DNA of 64,000 nucleotides, taken from assembly GCF_002381345.1 (NCBI RefSeq), contig NZ_CP020660.1:1054001-1118000 (forward strand). Direction: 5' to 3'. The DNA is from Candidatus Enterovibrio altilux (GTDB lineage: Bacteria; Pseudomonadota; Gammaproteobacteria; Enterobacterales; Vibrionaceae). Made by a program: the position numbers and the translations under genes. The notes under the pieces were generated by a model that saw nothing but the letters and a program-made list of their open reading frames with translations, made no database searches and was not told the origin of the DNA. Below, in pieces: positions 9,793-61,882 of the stretch. Each line of letters starts with the position of its first letter. Position 1 is the first letter of the stretch.

Positions 9793-10207
9793 TACGTTTC
9801 CTAATTTTAATTTAGCTAACAAATGCCAACATGGTTAATGATCAGGCAAGCACTTGCATTTTAAGTATACTTAGTTTTATCAGCTTATACAATGCTTTTA
9901 TCATGGCATAAGTTTTGCTAACCTGAGTCTTGTGATCCTTTAGATTCCATGTCCCTCCAAGTAGTTTTTTAATTCAAATCATTGCTGTCTCTGCTAGGAA
10001 ACGTTTACGGTAATCGGCTTTATTTCTTAAACCCAAAAACTACTTGGAGGGACATGGAGCCTAAGAGATTAGAATGCTTAAATTGACGAAGCCTACGCGA
10101 CGATAAAAGGATTAAGTAAGCTGACAGGGTTAGGTACGCTTAAAATAGAAGTTCTCGTCTAATAGTTAACCATGTTGGGACTTACTATCTGAAATCTACT
10201 AACAGAC
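9793..10207. mobile_element. MITE-like internal-deletion derivative of the IS903-group element
   Basis: About 415 bp with the 3' end of the IS at both borders. 9793-10014 is the 3' end in minus orientation. 10015-10030 is the 15-base left IS end (ggctttatttcttaaa-like). 10035-10207 is again the 3' end, in plus orientation. ccatgtccctccaagtag (9947-9964) is exactly complementary to bases in 10040-10057 and is the core of a perfect 23-bp match. All central transposase sequence is gone. It could fold into a very long hairpin as single strand. It sits 25 bases from the lexA remnant. Confidence 0.7.
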
Positions 10208-10231
10208 ATTTTTTGAAAACTTATTGGAATG

Positions 10232-10872
10232 TTAAAATGGTGGACTACATTCAGTTACTACGCGCCGAACCACATCCACAATGATACCTTCAATTGTAAC
10301 GTTCTGTTGAGTCAAATCTATAACGACCGGAGTAAACTGTTCGTTCTCCGAATGTAGCCATACTTGGAGATCTTTTCGTTCAAGACGTTTAATCATTATA
10401 TCATCTGCAAGCCGTGCGACAACAACTTGACCATTACATACATCTTGGGTTTTATGCACTGCAAGTAAATCGTCATCTATTATACCGATGTCTTTCATGC
10501 TTATTCCATTTAAACGTAGCAAAAAATCAGCATTGGGCTTGAACAAACTCGGGGGCAATTTTATAGTATATATTCTACATGTTCATGTGTTAATAGTAGT
10601 TCTCTAGTAATAGCATAATCAATCAACGGCAAGCCTTCTTTATTGTTTACTACGTCGTGGTTTACCAACAGATGAATACCACGAAAAGCGCCAGCTATGA
10701 GTTTTAATGCTCCTTTGCCCGCAAGCGCTTTCAAATGTTCTTCAGCCGCGTTTGTTGAACGGAACCCTAGCTCTTTGGCGATTCCAGCTCTAGTTGGTGG
10801 CATTCCACAGTCATTAATTTTTCCTTTAATTAAATCCAAAATTTGCTGCTATTTAGTGGTTAATGGCTTCAT
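10232..10872 (-). pseudogene. lexA: SOS repressor LexA, pseudogene
   Basis: LexA represses DNA-damage genes and self-cleaves when RecA filaments form. From ATG 10872 the frame reads MKPLTTK then TAG at codon 8, then continues [10 protein letters not shown]...[27 protein letters not shown] (winged-helix domain). A stop/frameshift near 10560 separates the C-terminal peptidase half ([15 protein letters not shown]...). The self-cleavage Ala-Gly is replaced (AAGEPLL-type becomes AITRELL), while the Ser of SMKDIGI and the Lys of IKRL survive. Two hits plus loss of the cleavage site make this nonfunctional as a repressor. The upstream SOS boxes remain. Confidence 0.92.
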
Positions 10873-10880
10873 ACTTAGGC

Positions 10881-10896
10881 CTGTTTTTTAATACAG
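10881..10896 (-). promoter_or_regulatory. LexA (SOS) box, proximal
   Basis: Minus strand CTGTATTAAAAAACAG, a 16-base match to CTG-N10-CAG with its first half perfect, 8 bases upstream of the lexA start codon. Tandem boxes at this spot are the standard autoregulatory arrangement of lexA. Confidence 0.75.
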
Positions 10897-10900
10897 TTTA

Positions 10901-10916
10901 CTGTAGGTATATCCAG
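10901..10916 (-). promoter_or_regulatory. LexA (SOS) box, distal
   Basis: Minus strand CTGGATATACCTACAG, CTG-N10-CAG, separated from the proximal box by 4 bases, close to the double-operator spacing in E. coli lexA. Confidence 0.75.
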
Positions 10917-11002
10917 TGTTTAACCGCTTGAAAAGATGTATTTAGCATCCATTTTTTCATGCGCATTTACGAGCGTAAATTGTGTTTTTTACATGCCATA
11001 TG

Positions 11003-11363
11003 GGCTTTGTTTCTTAAATTAGGGAACTAAATCATCAATTGACGCTCTAAACAGTTAGGTTCACTCAAATATTTAGACTTATGCACATGCTTCGTTGCAA
11101 AACAACTAACTGGAAATAATATAATCAAGCTAGAAGCAATTGTGATTCACTACCATTCTGGATTGATGAAAAAGTCATTTAGCTATGGAATCAAACTAAG
11201 CAGAATAATCATGTGAGACCTCATTTATTTGGCGACTTAGCCATTACGATGGCTTTCATGGTTAAATGCGTATTTTTAATGCCATTGAGAAGTCTGCAAG
11301 AATTCATTAGTTCTACTTTTAAACTTGCTTAACTGCCATTGCTATACTCTTACTTTATATGGC
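11003..11363 (+). mobile_element. IS903-group element, 5' third only
   Basis: Begins with a well-kept left end (ggctttgtttcttaaa) and follows the transposase N-terminal region through NQTKQ..., RPHLFGDLAITMAFMVKCVF and the SLQEFIS segment, then loses similarity near 11363. The remainder is deleted. Confidence 0.75.
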
Positions 11364-12032
11364 ACTTTTACAGCTATAAATCTTGTTCGGCTTTACCGGT
11401 TGGAACTTATTTCCAAAATGATATCAATTTTTGTAAAAATATAACCGATAAGTTAGCTTGTTACTTTACCTATTGATAATAGCTTATATCCCTATTATCT
11501 TTTGACCATAAGTTGCGGTGGAAAGGTTTGAGTAGTTAATTATATCACTTATTATAAAAATATGTTTGTCAGCTATTCCGTAGTAGTGATTCACGTTTAA
11601 CTGACCGTGAGAGTCGTTTATTTGAGCTCACAGTTTTTAAAGTGAAAGGGTAGGCTCTATTTGTTTGATCATTAGCAAAAAATAGACATCTCGCCTTTAT
11701 TTTTTATGCGCAATTCAGATGAATCAGCGTAAGTGAGTATATAACTTTAAAAGAGTACTGACCTAGACATCATAAGGTATTGTTGGGGTGATGTGAAATA
11801 GGGATTATAAAAATGGACAGTATGATTCGCTGAATCCTTTGAAAAAAACGGGTATAATTAGGATCCATATATTTAATTTTTGTGGAGTGACTATTATTAA
11901 TGTTCAGTGTCGCTTTTCGGCAAATAAGTACAGTTCAAAAGTTCGGAATAGGCATGGTGCGCATCAATATTACCGTGATAAGCAATGCTGACTAATCTTC
12001 TAGCTTGAATATTTTATAAATCTGATCATTTG
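11364..12032. other. Long non-coding stretch left of the IS1 remnant
   Basis: About 670 AT-rich bases. No open frame with recognisable motifs on either strand. In relatives plsB and ubiA lie near lexA, but I see no trace of them. The last part (about 11900-12030) may be the unrecognisable front of the IS1-type element that ends at 12206. Confidence 0.4.
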
Positions 12033-12206
12033 AGTATAAAAGAGCACATTGTTGGCAAGCTTTATACTCAATGTATTGATAGGGATAATGTGATTCTTCA
12101 CATTCGCTTGAAATGGCTCAATAGCGAAACAATCGGATACTCACACCTACCGGAAATGCATAATAAAATTTTTAGCACATTCATTAAACGTGCGTATCAC
12201 TTTTAA
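12033..12206 (+). mobile_element. IS1-family transposase, C-terminal 57 codons
   Basis: One open frame reads KEHIVGKLYTQCIDRDN, then ILHIRLKWLNSETIGYSH, LPEMHNKIFSTFIKRAYHF and stop. This aligns along its length with the IS1 transposase C-terminus (family: E-IVGK-FTQ-IER-NL-LR-RIKRL-RKTI-FS-S-EMHD-VIG-FI). The rest of the element is missing or unreadable. Two further decayed pieces of the same tail are at 13236 and 47188. Confidence 0.75.
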
Positions 12207-12269
12207 ACCACAATCAACTTATTGAATACATGCTAATTTATGGTAGATTTCATGAGGTAAATACTGGCG

Positions 12270-12914
12270 ATGGGAATAAGAGCACAGCAAAAAGAAAAAA
12301 CACGTCGTACCTTGATTGATACTGCATTTAGTCAACTTAGCGCCGATCGTAGTTTTTCCAGTTTAAGCCTCCGCGAAGTGTCTCGGGGCGCTGGCATTGC
12401 ACCGACGTCTTTTTATCGTCACTTTAAAGACATGGATGAGCTAGGTCTAACCATGGTAGATGAAGGTGGTTTGTTGCTGCGTCAATTGATGCGTCAAGCA
12501 CGTCAGCGTATTGCGACAGAAGGCAGTGTGGTCAGAACGTCAGTCGAAACTTTCATGGAATTTATTGAAAGTAATCCTAACGTTTTTAGACTGTTATTGC
12601 GTGAACGTTCTGGTACATCAGCGGCATTCCGTGTAGCTGTAGCGAGGGAAATTCAAAACTTTGTTGCCGAACTCACTGAGTATTTTGAAGTGAAGAACGG
12701 ACTGACCCATGAGGCAGCCTATAATCAAGCAGAAGCATGTGTCACATTAGTTTTTAGTTCTGGTGCAGAAGTTCTTGACTTGGAAACGCGTGCACGCTCT
12801 GAGCTTTCTGAACGATTGGTGACTCAATTATTAATGATTGCAAAAGGCGCGTATTGGTACTGTAAAGAGCGGGAGTGTAATGCCCTCAAGGATACGTTGT
12901 CTTCAGGTAGGTAA
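12270..12914 (+). CDS. fabR: FabR, TetR-family repressor of unsaturated fatty acid synthesis
   Basis: Represses fabA/fabB according to the ratio of unsaturated to saturated acyl thioesters. 214 residues. The HTH domain is at 1-60 ([15 protein letters not shown] ... [21 protein letters not shown]), essentially the FabR signature. The ligand domain has [34 protein letters not shown] and [20 protein letters not shown] 12270 matches the short form of the family start, although the spacing from the nearest purine-rich site is unremarkable. yijD, usually next, is not seen. One of the few transcriptional regulators left intact in the window. Confidence 0.95.
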
Positions 12915-13235
12915 TAATTATGGAAACAAAGCCTGTGTAACCACATTTCCTCTTGCTGTACAGGAAGTGGCGTGTATCTGCGAAGTAGATGAGCGATGAT
13001 CTTTCGTAGACAGTAAAAAAAGCGTGCTGATTCTAATATGCGTGGGAACTTCGACTGAAAAAGTTTATTGCTTACGTATTGGATTGTCGTGGCAAAAAAA
13101 TTTAATGTACTTTTCAATTATTTGTCCATGTGCAAAATTGTGTTGTGGTGTGTAGATGATTTTAATGATACAGTATACTTCGTAAGAATAAGCTTATTAG
13201 TGGAGAGTTTCATACGCAACACATTAAGTAAAAAA
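12915..13235. other. Spacer after fabR
   Basis: About 320 bases. It begins with atggaaacaaagcc 4 bases after the fabR stop, which stops after five more codons. This might be a dead yijD start or an IS end (aaacaaagcc is the IS right terminus). No further gene content recognised. Confidence 0.35.
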
Positions 13236-13344
13236 AGTTGATCTTCAACACTTGCTTGAAATGACCCCATAAAAAAACGAATGGATATTTACAGTCAATG
13301 GAAATACATAATAGATTCATTGACCATGCGTAGTATCTTTACAT
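13236..13344 (+). mobile_element. IS1-family transposase tail, decayed
   Basis: Translates as IFNTCLK, stop, PHKKTNGYLQSMEIHNRFIDHA, stop, colinear with the 12033 copy (LHIRLKWLNSETIGYSHLPEMHNKIFSTF). Short and interrupted. Confidence 0.6.
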
Positions 13345-13974
13345 GATTTTACTTCCTACATTAGAGCACTAAATTCCTAATCTACGTTCTAAACAGCCAG
13401 GTTTACTTAAATTTTCAGATTTATGAACAAGCTTTACCACAAAACCACTAATTGGAAGGGCTTTGTTTCTTAATTCAAGTTCAGATGCAAATCCTAACAT
13501 GATTCCCTATTAGACAATTGCTTTCGTTTTAGACATACCTAGTCTTGTCAGTTTATTTAACGCGTTTATCATTGCGTAGGTTTCCGTTAATTTGAGTTGT
13601 GTGATTCCTTAGGCTCAATGTCCCTCTAAATAGCTTTTTGACTAGAACCATGGTTGTCTCTGCTAGGGAATGTTTATCATAACTGGCTTTATTTTTTAAA
13701 GTATGGAAATCAATTTTCAATCAAGACTCTAAACAGCTAGGCTAACTTAAATTTTCAGGTGCATGAATAAGTTTCGCTATAAAATAACTAACTGGAAGGG
13801 CTTTGTTTCCAAATTCGAGTTTAGATCACAAATCTTAACATGATTAACGATTAGACGTTCGCTTTCGTTTGAGGCATACTTAACTCTGCCAATTTAGTTA
13901 ATGTTTTTATTATGCGTAAGTTGCGCTAATTTAGCTATTGTAACCCCCTGAAACTCAATATTCCTTTAAGCAGT
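13345..13974. repeat. Tandem array of IS end pieces, unit about 340 bp
   Basis: Order: 5' piece (+) 13345-13458; 3' piece (-) 13459-13684; 5' piece (+) 13685-13798; 3' piece (-) 13799-13974, shortened. Both 5' pieces break at the same place, after ctaactggaa or its variant, and are followed at once by gggctttgtttc. The step between repeat starts is 340 bases (13459 to 13799). The array runs directly into the near-complete copy at 13975. Confidence 0.75.
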
Positions 13975-14988
13975 TTGATTTTTTTAAATCAGGGAAATAA
14001 ATGATCAACCTATGCGCTAAACAGCCTGGTATACTGAAATATTTAAGTCTATGAGCAAGTTAAACGCTAAAATATCTAATCGAAAAAAGTATATAAAATT
14101 TTAATCAATCATGGCTCACTGACATCTTGGACTGATTAAGAAGCTATTCAGCTATGACATCCAATGAAGTCGCATAATTGTGGTAGACCTCACTGATTTA
14201 GCTACTTAGCCATTACGACGAATTTTCATGGTTAAATAAGTATTTTCAATGCTGTTGAAAGGTTTTCAAAGATTTATTAATGTTGTTTACAAACGCATTT
14301 AACTGTCGTTGTCATGTTCTCATTCTTCATGTATTAGCAAGTGAGTTCAAGTGGTTAACATCGTGTTTAAACCCAATACTAAAGGCATAATTTAACACCT
14401 AACTATTCATTATATGGGCTGAAAGTCTACGATGAAAACGAAAGGAGAGTAAACAGCATGACACTGCCGATAAACGTCAAATTTCGCAGTAAATACAAAT
14501 ACGCATGAAACTATTGTTGCTGAGTTAAGTTCATCAAATGTGCCTGATGGTGAATAGCTTGCTCAAGCAGGCTAGCCGAAGCATTAATGAGATATTAGGC
14601 AGTGGCGCTTGCGACGCATAAAAGTGTTACGAAATAGCTCCGTATTAAACGACCAATTGTACTTATTTCTACAAAGAAAGAACGTATTTTTTGAAAATGA
14701 AATGATACATAGAATCTAGCTATCAAACGTTATACCCTCTACATAAGCATTGAATAAAAGGTATTGCTGTCATAACCATTCTACATTTAAGACAGAAATA
14801 TTACGAATCAAAAATTGCTCGGAGGACATTGAGCTTAAGAGATTACGATGTTCAGATTGGTGAATTTTACGCCATGATAAAAGTGCTAAATAAGCTAACA
14901 GAGTTATGTATGCCTAAAACGTAAGCGATTGTCTAATATTATACTATGTTGGAACTTGCTTATCTGGTCGAGAATTAGGAAATATAAT
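13975..14988 (+). mobile_element. IS903-group element, near full length, third member of the array
   Basis: Left end gatttttttaaatcaggg. Transposase frame fragments with many stops: the DDE region near 14400-14600 is heavily altered, and the ATGTTCAGATTGGTGAATTT-like region at 14848 is still alignable. Right end ...gaattaggaaatata is eroded. Confidence 0.75.
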
Positions 14989-15082
14989 CTAGCATATTTA
15001 CATTTGCAGATTATAACCTTAATTATCAAAGGAATTGATAAATGCAGTAATATTTTCCGTCTCATTCCTTCTGGAGAATCGT

Positions 15083-15244
15083 ATGTTTACAAAAAAAAAA
15101 TTATTACAAACAAATTGTAATCGAGGAGCAACTACTGCGGCAAATCGAAGGAAAAGAATGCGTTCAAACAATTTAAAAAAAATATTATGTCGTCAGCGTA
15201 GGTTTGCAATCAGAGAGTTTGCAGATTTCGAGGGGTATTATTGA
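15083..15244 (+). CDS. Small basic protein, unrecognised
   Basis: 53 codons from ATG 15083, with ctggag 7 bases upstream, a usable ribosome site. MFTKKKLLQTNCNRG followed by NRRKRMRSNN and ILCRQRRFAIREFADFEGYY: about one third Lys/Arg, two Cys, no hydrophobic segment. It starts about 95 bases after a dead IS, and I know no family for it. It could be an RNA- or ribosome-associated micro-protein or a fragment. No function is claimed. Confidence 0.35.
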   Translation: MFTKKKLLQTNCNRGATTAANRRKRMRSNNLKKILCRQRRFAIREFADFEGYY

Positions 15245-15506
15245 GGCACTCACTATCACATTCTTTTTTTACCAAGATATCAAACTCATTTTTTAATGAC
15301 AACTTGACTAGCACATCATTGTGTGTTTTTTCATTTTTTCTCTTTGCACGACGATGGAGAAGACTTTAAGCTGGTTGCAACATTTTTTCACTACTTCCAT
15401 TGATAAATAACAAAGTGGTTAACACCGTCATGACTCAACAGATTCATATTACGGCCTACAGCCGCAGTTTGTGCATTAAGCGCATTGTAGACTTCTTCCC
15501 CAATAA
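15245..15506. other. Spacer containing an orphan minus-strand frame
   Basis: The only structure seen is an open minus-strand stretch at 15509-15391, listed separately. The rest has stops in all frames. Confidence 0.35.
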
Positions 15507-15509
15507 GTT
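15391..15509 (-). pseudogene. Orphan reading-frame remnant, unidentified
   Basis: Reads LIGEEVYNALNAQTAAVGRN, then MNLLSHDGVNHFVIYQWK and stop. Composition is protein-like (balanced, no low complexity) and GC is higher than the flanks, unlike random AT-rich spacer. Its upstream side is cut by the IS that starts at 15507, so it looks like the 3' end of a gene whose front was lost through the insertion. Family not recognised. Confidence 0.35.
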
Positions 15510-16210: not shown

Positions 16211-16538
16211 GGCTGTGTTTCCTAATTTGAGTTCAGATAGCAAGTCCTAACATGATTCGCTATTAGTCAAGCGGTTTTGTGCTAAGTATGCTTAACACTG
16301 TCAACTCATTTAATACTTTTATCATGACGTAGGTTTTACTGATCTGAGCCGTGTGATCTCTTAGGCAATGCCTCTTCCAGTAGTTTTTTAACTCGAACCC
16401 TTACTGTCCCTGTTAGGCAACATTTATGGTAGCCGGCTTTATGTCTTAAATTAGGGAACTGAATTGTAATTAATACTTTAAATAGCTAGGCTCACTTAAA
16501 TATGCAGGCCTAGAAGTAACTTTTGTGCTACAAAACAA
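16211..16538. repeat. Inverted 3' end joined to 5' end of the IS
   Basis: 16211-16434 is the IS 3' end in minus orientation, starting ggctgtgtttcctaa. At gtagcc/ggcttta (16434/16435) it passes into the IS left end in plus orientation, which breaks off near 16538. Same junction as at 13685, 22847, 39569 and elsewhere. Confidence 0.75.
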
Positions 16539-22311: not shown

Positions 22312-23073
22312 ACCATCGCTACATGTAACTTGGGTCAGACTCAACGTTTACCGCCAATGCCACGCTTTTTTACTGTTTATCCGCCTTCACATAAATTTTG
22401 GTCTTTAAAAATCAATGACTAAGTGCGGATGATTTTTGTAGTCTGAGTTTTAAACGCTACGTTAACCGTTTGGACTGGTATGGCTAATACATGAATAATG
22501 AGGTATGATAATGTCAGTTGAGCAAGTTTAAAAATAGAATTGATGAATCCTTACAGAACCCTCAATGACATTAAAAATACGTATTTAACCATGAACACCG
22601 TTTTAATGGGTAAGTCGCTCAATAAACGAGGTCTACTATGATTCTCCTGCTTAGTTTGATTTCATAACCAAATATCTTCTTCATTAACCCAGAATATTAG
22701 TGAGCCATGGTTCATTAAAACTTAATTATACTGCTTCCAGTGAGTTATTTTGTCGCTAAGCTTGTTTATAAATATGAATGTTTAAGTGAGCTCAGCTGTT
22801 TAGAATATTGAGTAAAAATGTAATTCTCTAATTTAGGCAATAAAGCCGATTACCATAAATGTTACCTAGAAGAGACAGAGATGGTTAGAGTCAAAAAAAA
22901 CCTAGGAAGGACATTGCACCTGAGGGCTTACAGTGCTTAGATTAGTGAAATTTGCACCATAATAAAAACGTTAAATAAGCTAACAGGGTTAGGCATGCTT
23001 CAAATGAAAGCGCTCATCCAATGGTTCATTATGTTGAAATTCGCTATCTGAACTCGAATGAGAGAAAAAAGCC
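22312..23073 (-). mobile_element. IS903-group element, 5' half inverted, with inverted 3' tail
   Basis: 22312-22847 is the transposase N-terminal half in minus orientation, ending with the left terminus (aataaagcc). 22848-23073 is the IS 3' end in plus orientation, ending ctgaactcgaatgagag. The junction is the recurring ggcttta/gtaatc type. The left boundary has no terminus, so the C-terminal half was deleted. Confidence 0.75.
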
Positions 23074-24811: not shown

Positions 24812-25848
24812 GGTTTTATTTTTTAAATCAGTGCACTCAATTATACATCTATGTTTTAAACGGTTAGGTTCACTTAAATGTTTAGGTTTATGAATAAGCT
24901 TCGTTACAAAATAACTAACTGAAAGCAGTATAATCAAATTTTAATTAATCCTGGCTTACTCATATTCTGGGTTAATGAAGAAGCTATCCAGCTACGTAAT
25001 CAAATTAAGCAGGGTAATCATGAAAGGCCTTGCTTAATTAACGATTGAGTTATTCATGGCTGAACGCGTATTTTCAATGACATTGAGAGATTAGGAAAAA
25101 TTCATTAATTTTGTTGCTAAATTTGTTCAATTGCTATTATGATGCCTTCATCATTAGTGAATAAGTTAGCGAGCCAAAACCGTTAACGTCACGTTCAAGA
25201 CGAAGAATAAAGGAAGCATCCAGTACTTACCATTAATTCTTCGGGGCTCAAAATTTACGGTGAAGAAGGATCCTGAGTAACAAAAAGATAGTACTGATGG
25301 AAAACGGTGTGTCTGGCGCAAGTTATATTTAACGGTAGGTATAAATATATATGAAATCATTGCTGCTGAGTTAAATGCATCAAATATAATTAACGGTGCA
25401 AGTGCTATCTGATTTGCTAAAATAGACTTGTCAAAGAATCAATGAAATATCAACCGATGGGGCTTACGATACCAGACAATGCTACGAAATCGTTCGGGTT
25501 AAACGAGCGGTTTCATTGATCCTGCTAAATAAAGGAGTAATTTTTGAGGAACGAGGTCATCCGTGTAATTTAGCGATTAATGACCAGCAGTTATACAGTT
25601 CAAATATGCATTGAAAAAATGAGGTATGTTACATAAAGGTTCCCTATCAGAGACGTCAATGGTTCGAGTCAAAAAACCTCTCTGAAGGATATCAAATTTA
25701 AGGGATCACAATACTCAGATTAGCGAAACTTAGCCATGATAAAAGTGTTAAATAATTTGACAAAGCTTAGAATGTCTAAAATGAAAGTAATGGTCTAATA
25801 ATTCATTCTGTAAGAACTTGCTATCTGAACTAGCATTAAAAAATCAAG
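24812..25848 (+). mobile_element. IS903-group element, full length
   Basis: Left end ggttttattttttaaatcag, right end ...ctgaactagcattaaaaaat. Most blocks are present but frameshifted; SSGLKIYGEEG shows the first catalytic region (Asp changed). Begins 91 bases after the transporter stop. Confidence 0.82.
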
Positions 25849-26299
25849 TCCCTAAGCTTTAAAAACATAATAAGTTACAATATTAGATAGCCATCATATT
25901 CATCAACTGGCATAATAATTAAATGGGCTGGATTGCTTAATAATATAGCATTATGTTATAAATTATGGAAGGTTATCTAGTTTGGAACCAAAAATAAAAA
26001 CTTAAAATTCAGTATTATAATACTCATATAGACAAGTACATGCCCATGAAATAATGGTTTTATGTTTTTGAAAGATGATGAATAATCTGAGGGAGTAAAA
26101 CCTAAAAGCGGTGACCAATAACCACACCTGTACAGTTGAAACCATGACTATTATCGTGTACTTTTGTGAGTTCACTCATCGCCGTAGTCATCAAATTATT
26201 GCCTATGTTAATGCGTAGTTTAAAGCAAAATACATGGTAGTTAGAATAAACAAGTGAATTTACTATAATGCGTTGAGTTATAAAAATTTGAAAGATATG
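25849..26299. other. Spacer before the IS630 remnant
   Basis: About 450 AT-rich bases. Its right part may be the eroded N-terminal half of the IS630-type transposase, but I cannot align it. Confidence 0.35.
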
Positions 26300-28931: not shown

Positions 28932-30190
28932 GGCTTTGTTTTTTAATTTGAGTTTAAAGAACAAACCTCTACATTATTCATTATTAAATAATCGATTACG
29001 TATTAGGCATACTTAATTCTATTAATTTATTTAACGCTTTTATCATGGCTTAGGTTTTGTTAACATGACCCATGTGATGCTTTATGCTTAGTGTCCCCCC
29101 CAATAAATTTTTAATTTTTGCTGTTTTTGCTAAAAATCATTAAATATTTAGTTTTATTTTTTAAATAAGAGCACTTGATTTTCAATCAACACTCCAAGCA
29201 GCTAAACTAACTGAAATATTCAGGTTTATGAAGAAGCTTTACTACAAAACAGTTAACTGGAAACAATATAATTAAACTTTAATCAATCGTGGCTTGCTAA
29301 CATTCTGATTCATGAAGAAGCTATTCGGCTATGGAATCAAGCTAAACAAAGTAATCATGGGGAAACCTCGTTTATTTAGTAGTTTAGCCATTACGACGAC
29401 CCTCATGGTTAAATGCTTATTTTCAATGTCATTGAAAGGTCAGTAAGGATTCATTAACTCTGTTTTCAAACTTGTTCACTGGTCGTTGTCATGCCCTCAC
29501 TACTCATGCGTTAGCAAGCAAGCCAAAACGGCATTATCGTTCAAAACGAAGAATAAAGGGACCATTCAGCACTTAACCATTGATTTTACTGGGCTCAACG
29601 CTTACGGTGAAGACGAATGGGAAGCAAACAAGCATGACACTGATGGAAAACAGTGAGTCTGGCGCAAGTTACATTTAGCGATAAAGATAAATACGCATGA
29701 AATTATCGTTGCTGAGTAAGTGCATCATATGTGATGACCGGTGAAGTGCTACTTCACTTGCTCAAACAGACCCGCCGCAGAATCAATGAAGTATTAACTA
29801 ATGGTGCTTACGGCACCAGATAATGTTACGAAATCGTTCGTATTAAACGAGCGGCTCCTCTCATTCTACCAAGAAAAGAGGCAATTTGTTGGGAACAATA
29901 TCATCCGTGTCATTTAGTGGTTAGTTACCAGCAGTTATACAGTTTAAATAAACATTATAAAACGAGATATAGCTACCATAAATGTGTTCTATTATAGACG
30001 CAAATACCTCGAGTTAAAATTTTTCAGAGGAACATTTAGCTTCAGGAATCACAATGCTTAGATTAGCGAAACCTCGCCATGATATAGGCGTTAAATAAGC
30101 TAACCAAGTTAAGTATGCTTAAAATACAAGCAATTCTTTAATAGTGAAGTATGTTTAAATTTGCCATCTCAACTTGAGTTAGGAAGTAAC
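28932..30190 (+). mobile_element. IS903-group element, plus, with inverted 3' tail (long-repeat form)
   Basis: 28932-29149 is the 3' end inverted; 29150-30190 is a full-length plus copy (left end agttttattttttaaataag). Outer borders are therefore both 3' ends. It has inserted into the copy at 28171-28931. Transposase frame broken, although blocks such as GAYGTR and PRRRINEVL are legible. Confidence 0.78.
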
Positions 30191-30362
30191 GTTAGTGTGG
30201 TCAACTAGAGAACCTGATAAAATAAACGAAATTCAATCGAGTATAATGGTGCTATTTTGAGCCATAACTAGTGCAATAAATGGGTTGCATATACCCATTA
30301 TAATAGTAATCTATTTTGTTTATCTAGATGTTTACTGTAAGTAGTATAAGTAAGGCTATAAA

Positions 30363-31052: not shown

Positions 31053-32187
31053 GGTTTTATTTTTTTAACTTTAGTTCAGATAGTAAATTTTTACATAATG
31101 CGCTATTAGACAATGATTGTTGCGTGAGGCATGCTTAGTACTATTAGCTTATTTAACGTTTTCATTATAGCATAGGTTTCGCTAGTTTGATCTGTGTGTT
31201 TCTTTAGGCTCAATGTTCCTTCAAGTAGTTTTTTAATTCTAAACTCTTGCTATCTTTGCTATGGAATGTCTATAGTAACTATGCCTTGTTTTCAATGCTG
31301 ATTGGAGTCGTTGGTTTAATACGACGGGTTTCGTAACATTGGCTGGAATCGTAAGCACCATTGTGTGATATTTTATTTACTCTTAGATGGCTTTATTTGA
31401 GCCAGTTAGATAGCACTTCATCGTCAGTTATATTTGATGTCCTTAACTCAGTAGCAATGATTGCAGACGTACTTATATTTACCGCTAAATTTAATTTGCG
31501 TCAGACCCGCAGCTTCTTATCAGTGCCATGTTTTTTACTTTCCATGTACTGTCACCGTAAGACTTTGAGTTCCGTAGAATCAATAGCTAAGTGTGGGATG
31601 GTTGCTTTATTCTTCGCTTTGAACATGACGTTAATAATTTTGATTCGCTTGCTCATGCATGAATAGTGAGGGCATGATAATGGCAGTTTAACAAGTTTGA
31701 AAACTTAATGAATTAATCCTTGCATACCTTTTAATGGTATCGAAAACATGCATTTAGCCATGAGAACCGTAGTAATGACTAAATCGCCCAATAAACGAAA
31801 TTTTTATGATTATTTTGTTTAGTTTTATTTTATAGCTGAATGACTTTTCCTCAATTCAGAATGTGAATGAGCCACGATGGATTAAAGCTTAATTATACTG
31901 CTTTTCGTTAACTGTTTAAAATGTTGATTGAAAGTTTAGCTCCCTTATTTAAAAAATAAAAAAATTTAAAATAAATATTTTTTAGCAAAGACAGCAATGA
32001 TTCGTGTTAAACATTACTGAAAAAAACATTGATCCTAAGGAATTACACAATTCAGATTAGTGAAACCTATGCCATGATAAAAGCGTTAAATAAATTAATA
32101 AAGCTAAGTATGCCTAAAACTAAAGCGATTATTTAAGGGTGAATCATGCGGAGATTTACTATTTGAATTCAAATTATGAAATAGAAC
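31053..32187 (-). mobile_element. IS903-group element, minus, with inverted 3' tail (long-repeat form)
   Basis: Right end ggttttatttttttaactt starts 15 bases after the rpe stop. The transposase is minus, with two deletions (about 80 bp near 31320 and one near 31905). The left end near 31955 passes into a plus-strand 3' tail to 32187. Both outer borders are 3' ends, mirror image of the copy at 28932. The open stretch 31361-31666 is on the non-coding strand of the transposase. Confidence 0.75.
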
Positions 32188-32681
32188 CATGGTGAAGGTG
32201 AATAGCAAATAAAAAAGCATGGCTTGATGGCGAAGTGCTGCTTAATGTATTCAAACAGACCTGCCGAAGAATCAATGCAATATTAGGCGGTGATGATTGC
32301 GACCTAAATAGTGTTAGGAAACCGTTTGTATTAAACGGACGGTTCCATTTATTTCACGAAGAAAAGGAATCATTTTTTCAAAACGAAAGAATACGGGTAA
32401 TTTCATTATCAGTTATTAGAAATTATAGGGCTTAAATAGACATTGAAAAATGAGGTATGATTACCGTAAACGTTCCCTATCAGAGACGGCAATGTTCCGA
32501 GTAAAAAATCGTTCAGAGGGACATTGATCCTAAAAAATTATAATGTGAGATTGGCGAAAGCTATGCCATGACAAAAGTGTTAAATAACTAAGCAAAGTTA
32601 GGCATGCCGAAAATGAAAGCATTCGTCTAATAGTAGATCATGTTGAAATTTGCTATTTGTACTTAAATTAGGAAAAAAATC
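32188..32681 (+). mobile_element. IS903-group element, 3' half
   Basis: Begins within the GEGEW block (ggtgaaggtgaatagcaaat), has an internal deletion of the KRRVWRKLHLAVD region, then reads on to a recognisable right end (...cttaaattaggaaaaaaa) 45 bases upstream of frdA. Confidence 0.75.
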
Positions 32682-38594: not shown

Positions 38595-39795
38595 TGGCTT
38601 TATTTTACGTATACCTAGCCCTGCTAGCTTATTTAACGCTTCTATCATGGCGTAGGTTTTTCTAATTTGAGTATTGTAATCCCTCCAGATCAATGGTCCT
38701 CAGAGTAGTTTTGACGCGAAACATTGTCGCTTTTGATAGGATATGTTTATGGTAACCGTACCTCGTTTTTCAATGTAGATTGGAACGGCGGAATATCTAG
38801 TAACTGATCGCCAAATTACGCGAATAACCACGTTTTTAAAAAATTATTCTTTTTTGGAGGTATGAGTGGAACCGCTCGCTTAATACGAAGGGTTTCGTAA
38901 CATTGTCTGGTGTTTTAAGCACCATCAGCTGATATTTTATTAATTTTCCGGCGGGCTAAGCTAGGCAGTTCTTGACTGTTAGTCAGATGTGATCCGCTTA
39001 ATGCAGCAGCAATTATTTTATGCGTATTGATATCTATTGCTACATGTAACTTGCGCCAGACTCGCTGTTTTCCATCAATACCATGATTTGTGACTTCCCA
39101 TCTTCTTTCACCGTAGGCTTTGAGTCCCGTAGAATCAATGGCTAAGTTATGAGTGCTTCCTTTATTCTGCGTCTTGAGCGTGACGTTAATTGTTTTGGTT
39201 CGCTTGCTAATGCATGAATAGTGAGGGTATGACAAAGGTAGTTGAACAAATTTGAAAACAGGATTAATGAATCCGGGTAGATTTCTCAATGGCATTAAAA
39301 ATATGCATTTAACCATGAGGCTCGTCGTAATGGCTAAATCGCTAAATGAACGAGGTCTCCCATAGTTACCCTGTTTAGTTTAACTCCATAGCTGAATAGC
39401 TTCTTCATTCAGTCAGAATGTTAGTGAATCACGATTGATTAAAGCTTGATTATGCTACTTCCAGTTAGTAGTTTTGTAGTGAAATGATTCATAGATCTGA
39501 ATATTTAAGTGATCCTAACTGTTTAGAGTCTGGATTAAAATTGAGTTCTCTTATGTAAAAAATAAAGCCGGTTATCATAAACGTTCCATAGCAGAGGCAG
39601 CAATAGCGCAAGTAAAAAAATACTCGAAGGGACATTGAGTCTAATGAATCACACAACTCATATTAATGAAATTTATGCTATAATAAAAGTATTAAATAAG
39701 TCTGGTAAGACTAGGTATGCCTAATACGAAAGTGATTATCTAATAGCGCATCATGTTGAGATTTGCTATCTAAACTCGAATTAGGAAACAAAGCC
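38595..39795 (-). mobile_element. IS903-group element, minus, with inverted 3' tail; best-kept transposase fragment
   Basis: The right end at 38595 (ggctttattttacgtatacc) has lost about 60 inner bases. The transposase is minus, with an open 133-codon piece (39316-38915): VKCIFLMPLRNLPGFINPVF, KTINVTLKTQNKGSTHNLAI, DSTGLKAYGERRWEVTNHG, DINTHKIIAAALSGSHLT. The catalytic Asp of DSTG is present. The left end aataaagcc (to 39569) joins a plus 3' tail ending aattaggaaacaaagcc at 39795. Confidence 0.82.
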
Positions 39796-54291: not shown

Positions 54292-54319
54292 ATGTGCTGT
54301 TTTCAAAGATTTATTTAAA

Positions 54320-55096: not shown

Positions 55097-55399
55097 AGGA
55101 ATGTCTCCATAATTCAATTATTACGATCAACGGTGGGAAATGATAGCAGAAAATTAGCTAGCATCACCCGCTCAAAATCAACTGAGATTATTTGTACGTA
55201 TTGCATGTGTAGTTATGAACCTTTGAATGATAGATCTTCGGCTGGTCACTCTGCAAGTGTACCATTGAGCAGCGCAACTTATGCTGAATTAACTTAAAGA
55301 TGCAGGCTGAAACATCTTAATGTTATAAGTTTTTCTAGACGTTTAGAAACTTATTGTCTTTCATAAGTATCCTATCGAATTTAGATTTGGGCTATAAAG
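55097..55399. other. Spacer upstream of tpiA
   Basis: About 300 bases containing the tpiA promoter region (minus strand). No clear boxes. Nothing else recognised. Confidence 0.4.
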
Positions 55400-56342
55400 A
55401 GCTTTTATTTTCTAAATAAGAGAACTAAATTTTTACTCAAAACTCTATACATCTAGGATAACTTAAATATTTGATTATGGAATCAAACTAAGCAGGTAAA
55501 AATAAAAGGCTTCGTTTATTGAGTGATTTAGTCATTACGACGCCCCGCATAGTGGAATGCGTATTTTCAATGCCATTGAGGCGTTTGCAAGGATTCATTA
55601 ATTCTGTTTTTAAATTTACTTAATCATCGTTGTTATGCTCTCACTATGCATGCATTAGCAAGCGCGAGAAAAGGTTAACGTCACGTTCAAGACTATGACT
55701 AAAGAAACCATCCAGCACTTAGCTATTGAGACTACAGGACTCAAAGTTTACGATGAATGCGTATGATAAGTAAAAAAGCATAGCACTGATGAAAAATGGT
55801 GAGTTTGGCGCAAGTTACATTGAGAGTAGATATAAATACATATGAAATCATTGCTGTTGAGTTGAGTGTATCAAGTTTGATTAGCGGTGAAGTGCAACCT
55901 AACTTGCTCCAACAGCCCTTCAGTAAAATCAATGAAATATTAACTAATGGTGCTTACGACACCAGATAATGTTACGAAACTATTCGTATTCAACGAATGA
56001 TTTCACTCAACTCACTAAGAAAAGAAGCAATGTTTGGGAACCGAGGTTATTCGCGCAATTGAACGGTCAGCTACTAGAAATGATACGGTTTAAATCGGCA
56101 TGTTAAAACGAGGTATAGTTACCATAAACGTCCCCTATCAAAAACGGCAATGTTTCGAGTCAACAAATTCCTTTGAGGAACATTGAACTTAAGAAATTAT
56201 AATGCTCAGATTAGCGAATCGTACGCCATAATGAAAGCATTACATAAGCTGACCGGGCTAGATATGCCTAATACGAAAGCGATTGTTTAATCGTTAATCA
56301 TGTTGAAATGTGTTATTTGAACTTGAATTAAGAAACAGAGCC
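55400..56342 (+). mobile_element. IS903-group element, plus, 5' deletion
   Basis: Left end agcttttattttctaaataag. About 100 bases missing between aatatttgattatgg and the NQTKQ block. Right end ...gaattaagaaacagagcc. The transposase is frameshifted; the first Asp is replaced (IDST to IETT). Confidence 0.8.
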
Positions 56343-56552
56343 GTATGTTTGCTATAGGCCCGATTTGTGAGTATAATTATGGTGACTTATTCATAATGAA
56401 GTTTTAGACGTAGTAGCAAATCACTGTGATCAGTTTTTAAAGGTTTTCCGTATCGAAACAATAGCGTCAATTAAGCCTTTTACGTTGGTTAAATATGCAT
56501 AGCCGGCGTGTAGTCATGCTAGCTGTCTCTCTATTAATGGAAATAGCAAAAT

Positions 56553-57602
56553 ATGAGTAATTCAGTGACTAAACCTATTGTACTCAGCGGGGTTCAACCG
56601 TCAGGTGCACTCAGTATTGGTAACTACATCGGTGCTTTGCGTCAGTGGGAACAAATGCAAGATGACTATGATTGCCAATATTGTATTGTTGATTTGCACG
56701 CCATTACTGTTCGCCAGGAGGCAGAGAGGCTGCGCAAAGATACACTTGACTCGCTAGCACTTTGCCTGGCTGTTGGTATAACGCCAGAAAAAAGTAATTT
56801 ATTTATCCAGTCTCACGTACCAGAGCATGCGCAACTTGGTTGGGTATTGAGTTGTTATACCCAAATGGGTGAACTTAATCGTATGACTCAGTTTAAAGAT
56901 AAATCATCTCGGCATGCCGAAAATATTAATGTGGGCTTATTCGGCTACCCTGTATTGATGGCTGCAGATATCCTGATATATCAGGCGAATAAAGTACCAG
57001 TTGGTTATGACCAGAAACAACATATTGAGCTTGCGCGTGATATTGCGAACCGTTTTAATAGTATTTATGGTGATATATTTATCGTGCCAGAACCGTATAT
57101 TCCATCAGTAGGCGCGCGTGTGATGAGCCTTCAAAACCCGGCTAAAAAAATGTCGAAGTCTGACGACAATCGTAATAATGTGATTGGTTTGCTTGAAGAT
57201 CCTAAGTCTATTGCTAAGAAAATTAAGCGTGCCATAACGGATTCTGAAAAACCACCACGGATACTGTTTGATATCGATAATAAACTTGGTGTTGCAAATT
57301 TAATGAGTTTGCTGTCCGTAGCCACGGGTAAAACGTTTGCAGAGATTGAAGCTGATTATATTGATAAAATGTATGCGCACTTGAAAACAGATACTGCCGA
57401 TGCGGTTATTGCGATGCTTGAACCTGTACAACAACGTTACGCTGCGTTCCGTCAAGATCGTGCGTATTTGGATCAGGTAATGAAAACGGGTGCAGAAAAA
57501 GCTTCTATAAGGGCTGTCATGACATTGACAAAAGTGTATGACGTAGTAGGTTTTGTTACTCACCCACAGGTGAAACGTATTTTTGAGTCATGTACTCCAT
57601 GA
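56553..57602 (+). CDS. trpS: Tryptophanyl-tRNA synthetase
   Basis: Class Ic synthetase charging tRNA-Trp. 349 residues (334 in E. coli). HIGH-type motif [52 protein letters not shown] in [15 protein letters not shown]. Start ATG 56553 gives the standard N-terminal [15 protein letters not shown]. It normally ends the dam-rpe-gph-trpS operon; here it is alone with IS on both sides, so the operon has been broken by rearrangement. Confidence 0.97.
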
Positions 57603-57653
57603 ACTGAGTTTAGTGTAATGTACCCACTAAAAATGCGATGTGTATTCGTAAAT

Positions 57654-58673
57654 GGCTTTGTTTTTTTAATCTAAGTTGCGTGCTATCTTAGGCTCAATAT
57701 CCCTCCCAGTAGTTTGTTGACTCGAACCACTTCTGTCTTTATTAGGGACCGCTTGTAGTAACCGGTTTTATTTTTTAAATAAGTAAACTAAATTATCAAT
57801 CAACACTTTAAAAAATTAATTTTACTTAAATATTCAAGTCTATGAAGAATCTTTGTTACAAAATAACTAACTGAACTTAATACAATCAAGCTTTACTCAA
57901 GCGTGGCTCACTAATATCCTGGATTGATGAAGAAGTCATTTTGCTATGGAGTTAGACTAAACTGGGTAATCATAAGGGACTTCGTTTTATTTAGTTACTT
58001 AGCCATTACGGCGGCTCTCATGGTAAATGCTTATTTTCAATGCCATTGAGGTCTGCAAAATTAATTAATTTTGTTTTTACATTTGCTCAACTGCCGTTGT
58101 TATGTCCTCATTATTCATGCATTAGTAAGCGAACCAAAATAGTTAACGTCACGTTCAAGACGAAGAATAAGGGAAGCATCCAGCACTTAGCCATTGATGC
58201 TATGGGGCTCAAAGTCTGTAGTGAAGGAGAATGAAAAGTACAAAAGCATGGTATTGATGGAAAACGGCGAGTCTGGCGTAAGCTATGTTTAGCGGCAGAG
58301 ATAAGTGCGCATGAAATCATTGCTGCTGGGTTAAGTGTATCAAATGTGACTGACGGTAAAGTGTTACCTAACTGCCTCAAACAGACCCACAAAAAAATGA
58401 ATGAAATATCAGTTTAGGGTGCTCACAACACTAGACAATATTACGAAACCGTTCGCCTTAAACGAACGGTTCCACTCATCCCATCAAAAAAGGCGTACTT
58501 GTTGGGAACGCGGTTATCTGCGTAATTTAGCGGTCAGTTACCAGAAGTTATACGGTTCAAATTAGCATTGAAAAACGGGGTATGGCTGCCATAAATTTTT
58601 CTTATCAGAGACGGAAATGTTTTGAGTTAAAAATTTTTTGAAAGAGATATGGAGCTTAAGAGATAACAAAGCC
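57654..58673 (+). mobile_element. IS903-group element, plus, with shortened inverted 3' tail, 3' end truncated
   Basis: 57654-57763 is an inverted 3' end with an internal deletion, and gtaacc/ggtttta (57763/57764) is the recurring junction. The plus transposase follows, with blocks VNVTFKTKNKGSIQHLAI, DAMGLKVCSEGE. It stops after aagagataacaaagcc, where an aacaaagcc terminus abuts about 190 bases too early. Confidence 0.78.
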
Positions 58674-58960
58674 CAGCTAGAAGGGAAATAACAGAGAAGC
58701 ATAATCGGATATCATAGCGATTCAATGTAATTATATATTTTATGGTGGTAACATTCCAATTTTAAACATAATGAGCTTATGGGTGAGTCGTAAGTGAATG
58801 AGAGTACATACGTGAGAATAAGTGGTTTTTACCATAAGTAACTTCAGTAAAACAAAAGAGATGGTAGACTTTCCACAAAACTTCAGTTTTAACGAGTCGC
58901 ACAAAATAAATTTAGCACTGTTGATGTAGAAGAACTAATAAAATATACATCGACAACAGT

Positions 58961-59407
58961 ATGTTAAAAGTACGTCACGCAGTAAAAGCAGCTGGTTGGT
59001 TGGTTATTGCTGATAACTCAGACTTGGAAATGGATGACTTAAAGGACGTACCAGACATATATAGTCACGTTATGCAAGGGAAGACAGGAACATCCGCGTA
59101 AGTATGGGAAGTCGACTAGCGAATGTGACTGATGCACCGATAAAAGTCTTAGCGCGTTTTTTCATTGCGTGTTGGTGTGCATGTATTACGCTGATGCCTT
59201 TATTCTATTAGTTGCCATGAAATATTTAAAAACATCATTGCACGTGAAACACTCGGTTTTCATGACTTCGATTATTACTTTGTGGTTTGGTTTGAAGGAC
59301 AAGGATGTGTATGAACAAACATTAAGCTTGAAACAAAAACACTACTTTTTCACCGTGACCAAGCATTGCATGTCCTATTCGCTGCAATTGATAAAATAAT
59401 GAAGTAA
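58961..59407 (+). pseudogene. rdgB: XTP/dITP pyrophosphatase RdgB, pseudogene
   Basis: House-cleaning enzyme hydrolysing deaminated purine triphosphates. Readable: LKVRHAVKAAGWLVIADNSD, LEMDDLKDVPDIYS (family: [30 protein letters not shown]), stop at 59099; then in other frames FKNIIARETLGFHDF and finally HRDQALHVLFAAIDKIMK, stop (family: SHRGQAL-LL...). The substrate-binding SHR is present as FHR, and the GFGYDP motif is broken (GFHDFDY). About 40 residues of the N-terminus (SGN-GK motif) are missing. It ends 7 bases before hemW, the conserved rdgB-hemW order. Confidence 0.85.
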
Positions 59408-59414
59408 TTTTTTT

Positions 59415-60581
59415 ATGTCTGACTGCAATATAGATACAACAATTCCACTGAGCTTGTATGTTCACATTCCATGGTGTGTGCATAAATGTCCCTATTGTGA
59501 TTTTAATTCGCACGTTTTAAAAGGCGACATACCGGAGCATAACTACATTAATGCACTGCTTGATGATTTGCACGTTGACCTTGCGTACTTTAATGGCGCT
59601 AGCGAACGCGAGTTACACTCAATTTTTATTGGTGGTGGTACGCCAAGCTTGATGTCTCCAGAAGAAATTTCACGGTTATTAATTGGCATTAACGCACAGG
59701 TCTCGCTTAAAGACGACATTGAAATCACTATGGAGGCTAACCCTGGTACCATTGAGGCAGATAAATTTATTGCGTATCGAAGTATTGGCATAAACCAAAT
59801 TTCCATTGGCATACAAAGTTTTGATGACCAACAGCTCAAACTTCTTGCCCGTATCCATGACTCTGAAGAAGCAAAGCGTGCTGTTAAACTGGCTCATGAA
59901 GCTGGATTAAACAGCTTTAATCTCGATTTGATGCATGGCTTGCCAGCTCAATCTATCGATAGTGCGCTAGATGATCTAAAACAAGCGATTGCACTCGACC
60001 CGCCTCACCTTTCGTGGTACCAGCTTACTATAGAGCCAAATACATTATATTATTCTAAACGGCCAACATTACCTAATGATGATGACTTGTGGAATATTTT
60101 CGAACAAGGGTATGCGCTGCTTACCGATGCGGGGTATGTGCAATACGAAACATCTGGATACAGTAAACCTGGTTATCAATGCCAACATAATTTGAATTAC
60201 TGGCGTTTTGGAGACTACATTGGCATTGGTTGTGGTGCTCATGGCAAAATCACAGACAGTTCGGGTACTGTACATCGAACAGTAAAAGTGAAGTATCCAC
60301 GCGGGTATCTCAACCATGAAAAAGAATACCGCAGTGAGTTGCATATAGTAGAGACAAATGAACTACCATTAGAATTTTTTATGAACAGATTTCGATTAGT
60401 CGAGGCATGTCCCAAAAAAGACTTCAATGCTCGCACTGGCTTAGCACTGAATGTCATTCAAACAGCCGTCGATAATGCCCTGAAACAGGATCTTCTTAGT
60501 GAAACAGAGACCCACTGGCAAGTCACACAAAAAGGCCGTTTATTTTTGAATGACTTACTCATAGTGTTCATTAACGAATAA
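59415..60581 (+). CDS. hemW: HemW, radical-SAM haem chaperone-like protein
   Basis: Radical SAM protein of the HemN-like group that binds haem and is proposed to deliver it to respiratory proteins; it is not a coproporphyrinogen oxidase. 388 residues (378 in E. coli). The 4Fe-4S motif C-x3-C-x2-C is CVHKCPYC at 21-28 (HemN itself has a further Cys, absent here). IFIGGGTPSLMS and ITMEANPGT follow, then NQISIGIQSFDD, FNLDLMHGLP and YWRFGDYIGIGCGAHGK. Downstream of dead rdgB, and probably cotranscribed with it. Confidence 0.94.
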   Translation: MSDCNIDTTIPLSLYVHIPWCVHKCPYCDFNSHVLKGDIPEHNYINALLDDLHVDLAYFNGASERELHSIFIGGGTPSLMSPEEISRLLIGINAQVSLKDDIEITMEANPGTIEADKFIAYRSIGINQISIGIQSFDDQQLKLLARIHDSEEAKRAVKLAHEAGLNSFNLDLMHGLPAQSIDSALDDLKQAIALDPPHLSWYQLTIEPNTLYYSKRPTLPNDDDLWNIFEQGYALLTDAGYVQYETSGYSKPGYQCQHNLNYWRFGDYIGIGCGAHGKITDSSGTVHRTVKVKYPRGYLNHEKEYRSELHIVETNELPLEFFMNRFRLVEACPKKDFNARTGLALNVIQTAVDNALKQDLLSETETHWQVTQKGRLFLNDLLIVFINE

Positions 60582-60611
60582 AAGTAGCGTACTTCGCTGC
60601 CTTTATACACA

Positions 60612-61882
60612 GGCTTTGTTTCCTAATTCGAGTGCAGATAACATATCTTAACATGATTCACTATGGGACAATCGCTTTCGTGTTATACCTGTTTAGTCCT
60701 GTCAGCTTATTTAACGTTTTTATTATGGCAGGTTTCGCTAATTTGAGCCGCATGATTCTTTAGGCTTGATGTTCTTTTTAGTAGTTTCTTGACTCAAACC
60801 ATTGCTGTCTCTGCTAGGGAACGTTTATAGTAACCCATTTTATTTGCTAAATTAGGAAATTAAATTGTCAAGCAACATTTGAAACAGCTAGGTTAACTTA
60901 ATTATTCATGTCTATGCATAAATTTCGTTACAGAATAACTAACTGGAAGCAGTATAATCAAGCTTTACTTAATAGTGGCTCACTCATATTCTGGATTAAT
61001 GAATAAGTCATTTTGCTATGGGATGACACTAAACTGGGTAATCATGAGGGACTTTGTTTATTTAGTGATTTAGCCATTACGGCTGCCCTCATGATAAATG
61101 CATATTTTCAATGCCATTGAGGTCTACAAGAGTTAATTAAATTTGTTTTTTATATTTGTTCAACTGCCATTGTGATGTCTTCATTATTCATGCATTAGTA
61201 AGCGAGCCAAAATAGTTAACGTCACGTTCAAGACGAAAAATAAGGGAAGCATCCAGCACTTAGTCATTGATGCTACAGGGCTCAAAATTTATAGCAAAGA
61301 AGAATAGAAGGTAAAAAAGTATAGCACTGATGGGAAATGGTGAGTTTGGTGCAAGTGACATATAGAAATAGATATAAATGCGTATACAATCATTGCTTTC
61401 GAATTAAGTGCATCAATGTCACTGATGTTGAAGTGCTACCTAATTTGCTCAAACAGACCCGTCAAAAAATCAATAAAATATCAGTTTGTAGTGCTTGCGA
61501 ATCAGACAATATTATGAAATCGTTCGTATTAAATGAACGGTTCCACTCATTCCACCAAGAAAAGAAATAATTTTTTTGAAACAAGATCATCCGCGTAATT
61601 TAGCGGTCAGTTACCATAAGTTATAAGGTTCAAATAAAGAATGCAAAACAATGCATATTTACCATAAGTGCTCCCTATCAGAGACGGCAATGTTTCGAAT
61701 CAAAAAATTATAGGGAGGACATTGAGCCTAAGGAATCATAATGTTAAAATTAGTAAACTTATACCATAATAAAAGCGTTAATTAAGTTGACAGGACTAGC
61801 CGTGCCTAAGATGAAAGCGATTGTCTCATAGTAAATCATGCTTGGGGTTTGCTATATGAATTCAAATTAGAAAACTAAGCCC
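60612..61882 (+). mobile_element. IS903-group element, plus, with inverted 3' tail (long-repeat form)
   Basis: 60612-60834 is the inverted 3' end (ggctttgtttcctaattcga), one of the cleanest. The junction gtaaccc/attttat is slightly altered. A full plus copy runs to the right end ...caaattagaaaactaagcc at 61882. Both outer borders are 3' ends. Confidence 0.8.

What the first reader, a model, noticed from the sequence alone, without database searches (positions are those of the whole stretch)
9793..61882. A chimeric IS with long terminal inverted repeats that appears to have transposed as a unit
About nine places show one structure: a roughly 220-bp inverted copy of the IS 3' end joined to the IS 5' end at the junction gtaacc/ggcttta. 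They lie at about 10015, 13685, 16435, 22848, 29150, 31960, 39570, 57764 and 60835. Where the rest of the element is present, both outer borders are the 3' end (28932-30190, 31053-32187, 38595-39795, 60612-61882). A shared internal junction at dispersed sites is hard to explain by independent nested insertions; one chimera that spread is simpler. The result is an IS903-type element with about 220-bp inverted repeats instead of about 18 bp. I know of no description of this form.
Basis: partly seen in the sequence, partly recalled or inferred. Interest (0 to 1): 0.72.

Follow-up and report, generated by a model that had tools for sequence, protein, structure and literature searches.

The report
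Jumping gene with two right ends
In the shrunken genome of a bacterium that lights up deep-sea anglerfish, a common jumping gene fused with an upside-down piece of a second copy of itself, and the fused unit then spread to well over a hundred places before it decayed.

Summary
The window lies in "Candidatus Enterovibrio luxaltus" CC26. Pieces of one IS903-like IS5-family element (profile 1051 bp) cover about 28% of an 864-kb sample. In that sample 93 of 226 IS 5' ends carry an inverted 3' end in front. In half the genome 132 copies share one junction, "family I". Of 233 junctions between an IS terminus and a broken IS fragment, 130 fall in this class, 7 in a second, at most 4 in any other.

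Family I is one lineage: both sides of the junction carry substitutions rare in conventional copies, and it is younger, 14.8% against 18.0% median divergence. Excess 9-bp duplications flank the whole unit (6 of 65), never the inner border (0 of 65). One unit sits inside another IS whose sequence resumes with a 9-position overlap.

I infer nested insertion, then use of the two outermost right ends. My paper searches found no description; ISfinder was not searched.

The parts
9792..10034 (+). Family I junction: prefix (inverted 3' end, 9792-10015) plus a stub of the IS 5' end
   Evidence: Prefix hit model 813-1049 and junction string at 10010-10022; too little IS left to be classified as a 5' end
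13459..13798 (+). Chimera, prefix 13459-13684 and IS model 1-114, broken by the next element
16211..16538 (+). Chimera, prefix 16211-16434 and IS model 1-103
22315..23073 (-). Chimera, prefix 22848-23073 and IS model 1 to about 534
28932..30191 (+). Chimera with both outer 3' ends: prefix 28932-29149, IS 29150-30191 (model to 1049)
   Evidence: inner end of prefix decayed
31054..32188 (-). Chimera with both outer 3' ends and an internal deletion (model 719-794 missing)
   Evidence: border 9-mers match 6 of 9 with slip 1
38599..39795 (-). Chimera, prefix 39570-39795, IS 38599-39569; 3' truncated at model 986
57661..58678 (+). Chimera, prefix truncated at its outer side (model 824-928), IS model 1-920
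60612..61885 (+). Chimera with both outer 3' ends: prefix 60612-60835, IS 60836-61885
   Evidence: border 9-mers match 7 of 9 with slip 1; used as query
24812..25854 (+). Example of a conventional copy without prefix, for comparison
   Evidence: IS 5' end without prefix, model 1-1043 of the first profile

Best explanation
Family I is a derived insertion sequence of about 1.27 kb that descends from the genome's own 1.05-kb IS903-like element. Most likely (inferred) one IS copy inserted, in opposite orientation, into another copy next to model position 826, and the transposase then paired the host copy's right end with the inserted copy's right end. That carries off 226 bp of the host copy's 3' end plus the whole inserted IS, with no deletion needed. 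The product has right ends at both outer borders, 226-bp inverted arms and the old left end buried inside. Shown: it is one lineage, it lies at more than 130 sites in the half of the genome examined, its outer borders carry the 9-bp duplication signal, and it is younger than the conventional copies. Inferred: the founding nested insertion, the pairing of two right ends, and exchange of bodies between chimeric and conventional copies during the spread. The copies have since decayed without sign of selection on codons.
For: One junction: 132 prefixed copies of 145 at model 822-832; 130 of 233 terminus-to-fragment junctions in one class, next classes 7 and 4. One lineage: derived bases at sites 32/39/42 in 122 of 132 family I copies (3 conventional, 7 unclear) against 11 of 157 unprefixed copies; private substitutions in the prefix; an intact V. 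gigantis relative has the conventional state at 14 of 16 such sites. Unit transposition: 9-bp matches of 7 or more in 6 of 65 units against 0.37 in shuffles, 0 of 400 shuffles reaching it; inner border 0 of 65; unit inside another IS, host model 2-602 then 594-1048. Host remainder beside the right end in only 1 of 62. Younger: median 0.148 (91 copies) against 0.180 (85), p 2.6e-13. Junction absent from 60 other genomes of the family.
Against: Most units show no duplication: 59 of 65 have fewer than 7 of 9 matches, and the first test with 34 units and no slip gave only z 1.0 at 9 bp. In the clean nested case the two decayed 9-mers themselves agree at only 5 of 9; the 9-position overlap is read from alignment to the profile. 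The body and 3' end do not separate the forms, so family I is not one clonal haplotype along its length. At site 32 the V. gigantis relative has the family I base; ISSod12 has the conventional base at 9 of 16 sites, the family I base at 2 and neither at 5. No founding nested locus was found.
Confidence: 0.9

Rival explanations
1. Independent nested insertions of conventional IS copies into a hot spot near position 826 of inverted copies.
For: Nested insertions do occur, and a second junction class lies only about 20 bp away.
Against: Insertions at a hot spot would leave the host remainder beside the right end: 1 of 62, and that one breaks at 788. Among about 84 abutments of element ends with broken IS fragments (hand sum of the printed bins, chimera inner ends not included), none lies at 820-839 and 1 at 840-849. 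Private substitutions on both sides of the junction.
Confidence: 0.03
2. The arm was copied onto existing conventional copies by gene conversion, not by transposition of the unit.
For: Bodies are mixed between forms and linkage to the junction fades with distance.
Against: The arm's outer side has no homology to convert into, yet ends at model 1040 or beyond in 115 of 132 copies; 9-bp duplications lie outside the arm; a unit with arm sits inside another IS.
Confidence: 0.05
3. Segmental duplication of a few loci, or misassembly, multiplied one nested IS.
For: 8 of the pairs among 107 non-IS flanks are similar; the published assembly has 14x coverage.
Against: One of the 8 pairs is the same DNA between two neighbouring units; the other 7 are short or about 73-77% matches, one of them 24 bp. 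Family I lies on contigs C1, C2 and C3. Copies differ too much to be collapsed reads.
Confidence: 0.02

Closest known systems
IS903 group of the IS5 family
   Same: Transposase family, length of the conventional form, terminal sequence pattern and 9-bp duplication.
   Different: Family I has two right ends outermost, 226-bp arms instead of short terminal repeats, and a buried left end.
Vibrio gigantis plasmid IS (NZ_AP025494.1) and ISSod12 of Shewanella oneidensis
   Same: Align to the whole profile; the V. gigantis element is 1051 bp and 80% identical to the profile consensus.
   Different: Both have the conventional architecture, no inverted 3' end in front (no such hit; a weak hit at another place in L132).
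Composite transposons with inverted IS copies (Tn903 type, recalled)
   Same: Mobilisation by the outermost ends of two IS copies in opposite orientation.
   Different: Here one copy is reduced to 226 bp and directly abuts the other; no passenger gene.
IS2 constructs with two right ends (PMC3299598, passages seen)
   Same: Two right ends in one element act as donors.
   Different: Laboratory constructs of another IS family, not a natural high-copy element.
IS inversions by recombination between terminal repeats in Wolbachia (PMC3004938, abstract seen)
   Same: Structural IS variants in a symbiont.
   Different: In-place inversions, not a new mobile unit.

Membership tests
IS903 group of the IS5 family | IS5-type DDE transposase | tested here: met
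   Window fragment 38915-39316 passes Pfam DDE_Tnp_1_5 (73.9 against cut-off 28.1) but, being partial, scores 120.1 against the NCBIfam IS5_2 cut-off of 140; the intact V. gigantis relative scores 380.5.
IS903 group of the IS5 family | Length near 1050 bp | tested here: met
   Profile 1051 positions; group members of 1050-1054 bp in PMC3281130 (passages). Family I units are longer, median 1258 bp.
IS903 group of the IS5 family | 9-bp target duplication | tested here: met
   Only 9 bp in excess at zero slip: 6 of 65 units and 4 of 69 conventional copies with at least 7 of 9, shuffled means 0.37 and 0.28. Most copies show none.
IS903 group of the IS5 family | Short terminal repeats (15-27 bp in the passages seen) with one left and one right end | tested here: not met
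   Family I has a right end at both outer borders and 226-bp arms. Conventional copies do meet it.
Composite transposon | Two IS copies flanking passenger DNA | tested here: not met
   The arm directly abuts the IS 5' end in 132 family I copies; no passenger.
MITE or foldback-type non-autonomous element | No transposase gene | tested here: not met
   Complete units hold the full IS body. Whether the founder made active transposase cannot be told from decayed copies.

The most novel reading that the evidence does not exclude
Fusion into a two-right-ended IS is a recurrent and advantageous route: it happened at least twice here (junctions near 826 and 845), and family I spread so widely because a pair of right ends is the better substrate. 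Only 11 of 135 copies with the chimera's 5' haplotype lack a detected arm, and two of those show traces of one, as if the buried left end was seldom used.
Probability: 0.3. Interest if true: 0.68.

Novelty: new variant of a known kind. Interest (0 to 1): 0.55.

Why it matters
It is a natural, high-copy case of an insertion sequence rebuilding its own ends from a second copy. It records how nested insertion plus a choice of alternative ends can make a new mobile unit without any passenger gene, and how that unit came to hold a large share of an IS outbreak (93 of 226 5' ends in the sample, second class included) in a genome undergoing reduction. It makes directly testable whether paired right ends outperform the normal pair. 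It also suggests exchange between IS copies strong enough to part the history of the ends from that of the body.

Tried and rejected
Promoter made at the junction: best sigma-70-like score 8 of 12 for the last 70 prefix bases plus 100 IS bases, shuffled mean 8.64; no support. Founder locus: the only candidate breaks at host position 788; not the founder. Duplication test: the first run (34 units, no slip) gave z 1.0 at 9 bp, slip 1 gave z 3.1, 65 units gave z 3.0 with no slip; with slip 1, 8 bp is in excess too (10 of 65 against 2.05). Second class: no private body substitution in positions 1-250, only common transition variants in the prefix, no duplication among 5 units, and its 16-base pattern gave 31 hits against 27 for the control. 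Arm-to-arm conversion: within-copy identity 0.697, between-copy 0.698; none seen. Small recurrent classes (3-4 copies): mixed nested insertions and fragments, not pursued. Transposase relatives in genome contigs: 46 pattern matches, none confirmed. Window: no Rfam family at gathering score, no tRNA. The first classification (86 of 220 5' ends with prefix) was replaced by the cleaned profile (93 of 226).

Papers: nine searches of the held library listed nothing whose title or abstract start describes this form; six papers were opened (abstract, passages or named sections only). ISfinder, subscription papers and supplements were not searched.
Full report
WHERE IT IS. The window is C1:1054001-1118000 of a genome of 2,143,356 bases in 4 contigs, the longest 1,604,691. 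Size, contig number and N50 equal those given for "Candidatus Enterovibrio luxaltus" CC26, symbiont of the anglerfish C. couesii (PMC6020299 Table 2, section 7 read). That paper (section 10 read) counts 672 IS5-family transposase genes, none of its transposase genes complete, and describes one expansion followed by decay. The passages and sections I saw do not mention a chimeric form, nor do the passages seen of PMC6773444.

THE PARENT ELEMENT. An iterated profile search over an 864-kb sample (340 kb of C2, 80 kb of C3, nineteen 20-kb stretches of C1 set at spaced positions, and the window) found 538 pieces with 239,697 aligned bases, about 28% of the sample, overlaps not removed. A cleaned profile has 1051 positions and runs from GGCTTTATTTCC to GGAAACAAAGCC. 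A Vibrio gigantis plasmid carries an element that aligns end to end with it: 1051 bp, 80% identity to the profile consensus, with an annotated 306-aa IS5 transposase. In loci of other genomes of the genus, 9 of 20 held a match starting at profile position 1-5, and none of the 9 showed a second, inverted match in front.

THE CHIMERA. In the sample 93 of 226 IS 5' ends have an inverted 3' end immediately in front. A further 213 kb of stretches chosen because they hold junction or unit matches (so not used for frequencies) bring the total to 145 prefixed copies. Of these, 132 have the junction at model 822-832 (family I), 82 of them in the sample; 7 have it at 843-848; 6 lie elsewhere. Scaled by the sampled fraction of 40%, family I would number about 200 in the genome (inference). 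In a census of 233 places where an IS terminus meets a broken IS fragment, 130 are in the one class 824-827, 7 in the class 844-847, and no other class exceeds 4. A 25-base junction pattern with up to 3 mismatches gives 68 hits here, 0 for the reversed control, and 0 in 60 other genomes of the family, 11 of the same genus among them.

ONE LINEAGE. If each junction were an independent nested insertion, the inner IS should be an ordinary conventional copy. It is not. At sites 32, 39 and 42 the derived combination (at least 2 of 3) is in 124 of 145 prefixed copies (14 conventional, 7 unclear) and in 11 of 157 unprefixed ones (133 conventional, 13 unclear); within family I it is 122 of 132, with 3 conventional and 7 unclear. 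The prefix has private substitutions of its own (847, 862, 911, 912, 855, 913 and others). The V. gigantis relative has the conventional state at 14 of 16 such sites; at 32 it has the family I base and at 882 neither. ISSod12, more distant, has the conventional base at 9, the family I base at 2 (18, 58) and neither at 5. So the conventional form is most likely ancestral. The host remainder expected beside the right end of a nested insertion is found in 1 of 62, and there it breaks at 788 rather than 834.

IT MOVED AS A UNIT. For 65 prefixed units (second class left out) and 69 conventional copies with both ends in hand, the borders were tested for direct repeats. At zero slip, out of seven lengths tried (4, 5, 7-11), only 9 bp is clearly in excess: 6 of 65 units with at least 7 of 9 matches (shuffled mean 0.37; 0 of 400 shuffles reach it; mean matches 3.11 against 2.63) and 4 of 69 conventional copies (0.28; 0 of 400; mean 2.87 against 2.65). 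The inner border gives 0 of 65. A first run with 34 units gave only z 1.0. Most copies of both forms thus show no duplication; scrambling by recombination between copies and adjacent deletion are known causes (PMC11708052, passages seen), which I did not test here. The best case (C2, start 224104) matches 8 of 9. In the window the 60612 unit matches 7 of 9 and the 31054 unit 6 of 9, each with a 1-base slip. The clearest single case is at genome C1:817499-818589: another IS reads model 2-602, then a whole family I unit (internally deleted, 1091 bp), then the host resumes at 594. That is a 9-position overlap by alignment to the profile, though the two decayed 9-mers agree at only 5 of 9. Of 83 chimeric units scanned, two others were flagged: one with host 7-402 and 399-499 and decayed borders, one with a 54-position gap. 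Of 69 conventional copies one was flagged, with the same 9-position overlap. Flanks are mostly unrelated: 107 non-IS flanks give 8 similar pairs, one of them the same DNA between two neighbouring units.

AGE AND DECAY. Median divergence from the group's own majority sequence is 0.148 for family I (91 copies, lowest 0.091) and 0.180 for conventional copies (85), Mann-Whitney p 2.6e-13. Divergence is nearly flat over codon positions, and C-to-T and G-to-A dominate. So family I spread later, and copies decayed without visible selection. Arms within a copy are no more alike (0.697, 58 copies) than arms of different copies (0.698).

NOT ONE CLONAL HAPLOTYPE. On FastTree trees of 121 copies the first 130 positions separate the forms (14 label changes; shuffled mean 38.2, minimum 30), but positions 251-820 and 821-1051 do not (36 and 37 against 38.0 and 36.4). 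Association of base with architecture falls from phi 0.73-0.80 at sites 32-42 to 0.33 or less from site 105 on. Linkage between transversion sites is 0.92 at 7 bp and at most 0.31 beyond 700 bp, with some stronger pairs in between (0.51 at 329 bp, 0.42 at 385 bp). The simplest reading is exchange between copies during the outbreak; weak tree signal and saturation at C-to-T sites could contribute.

MECHANISM. Shown: single origin of the junction, right ends at both outer borders, the 9-bp signal around the unit, younger age. Inferred: (1) an IS inserted into an inverted copy beside position 826; (2) the transposase paired the two outermost right ends, which needs no deletion; (3) afterwards the outer pair was used far more than the buried left end, since only 11 of 135 copies with the chimera's 5' haplotype lack a detected arm, two of them with traces of one. 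Elements with two right ends are functional in IS2 (PMC3299598, passages seen). No promoter-like gain was found at the junction.

SECOND CLASS. Seven copies join at 844-847 with the conventional 5' haplotype, 6 of them in the sample. Five with both ends show no duplication signal, and no private substitution stands out. It may be a second, smaller chimera, or coincident nested insertions.

JUDGEMENT. As a kind it is a new variant of a known kind: an IS903-group derivative with two right ends and 226-bp arms. Limits: half of the genome examined, no ISfinder, no strain comparison, no experiment.

Noticed in passing
model positions about 57-141, for example genome sample C2 31444, C2 123644, C3 45494, C1_880001 11752: An internal deletion over the likely start of the transposase gene recurs in 13 copies, 5 with prefix and 8 without; a deleted, transposase-defective variant may have spread too.
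   Followed up: partly
13347-13978: Two successive prefixes (outer ends at 13459 and 13799) both abut an IS fragment broken at model 114: two insertions at one point, or a tandem duplication.
   Followed up: no
51556 and 55401 (window), and 9 other copies in the sample: Copies with the family I 5' haplotype but no detected arm (11 in all); candidates for use of the buried left end or for loss of the arm.
   Followed up: partly
C2 46325; C1_1440001 18027; T_1478258 1494; T_773400 742: Four IS 3' ends meet an inverted IS fragment broken at model 400; one of them is a chimera lodged in another IS, the rest are unclear.
   Followed up: partly
all IS copies in the 864-kb sample: Very few copies of either form keep a recognisable 9-bp duplication, which suggests extensive rearrangement between IS copies or adjacent deletions.
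   Followed up: no
both ends of units and conventional copies, 12-14 bp outside the border: Outside the 9-bp duplication there is a mild excess of T at positions -14 to -12 read towards the element (0.56 at -14 for family I, 0.49 for conventional), a hint of a palindromic target preference.
   Followed up: no
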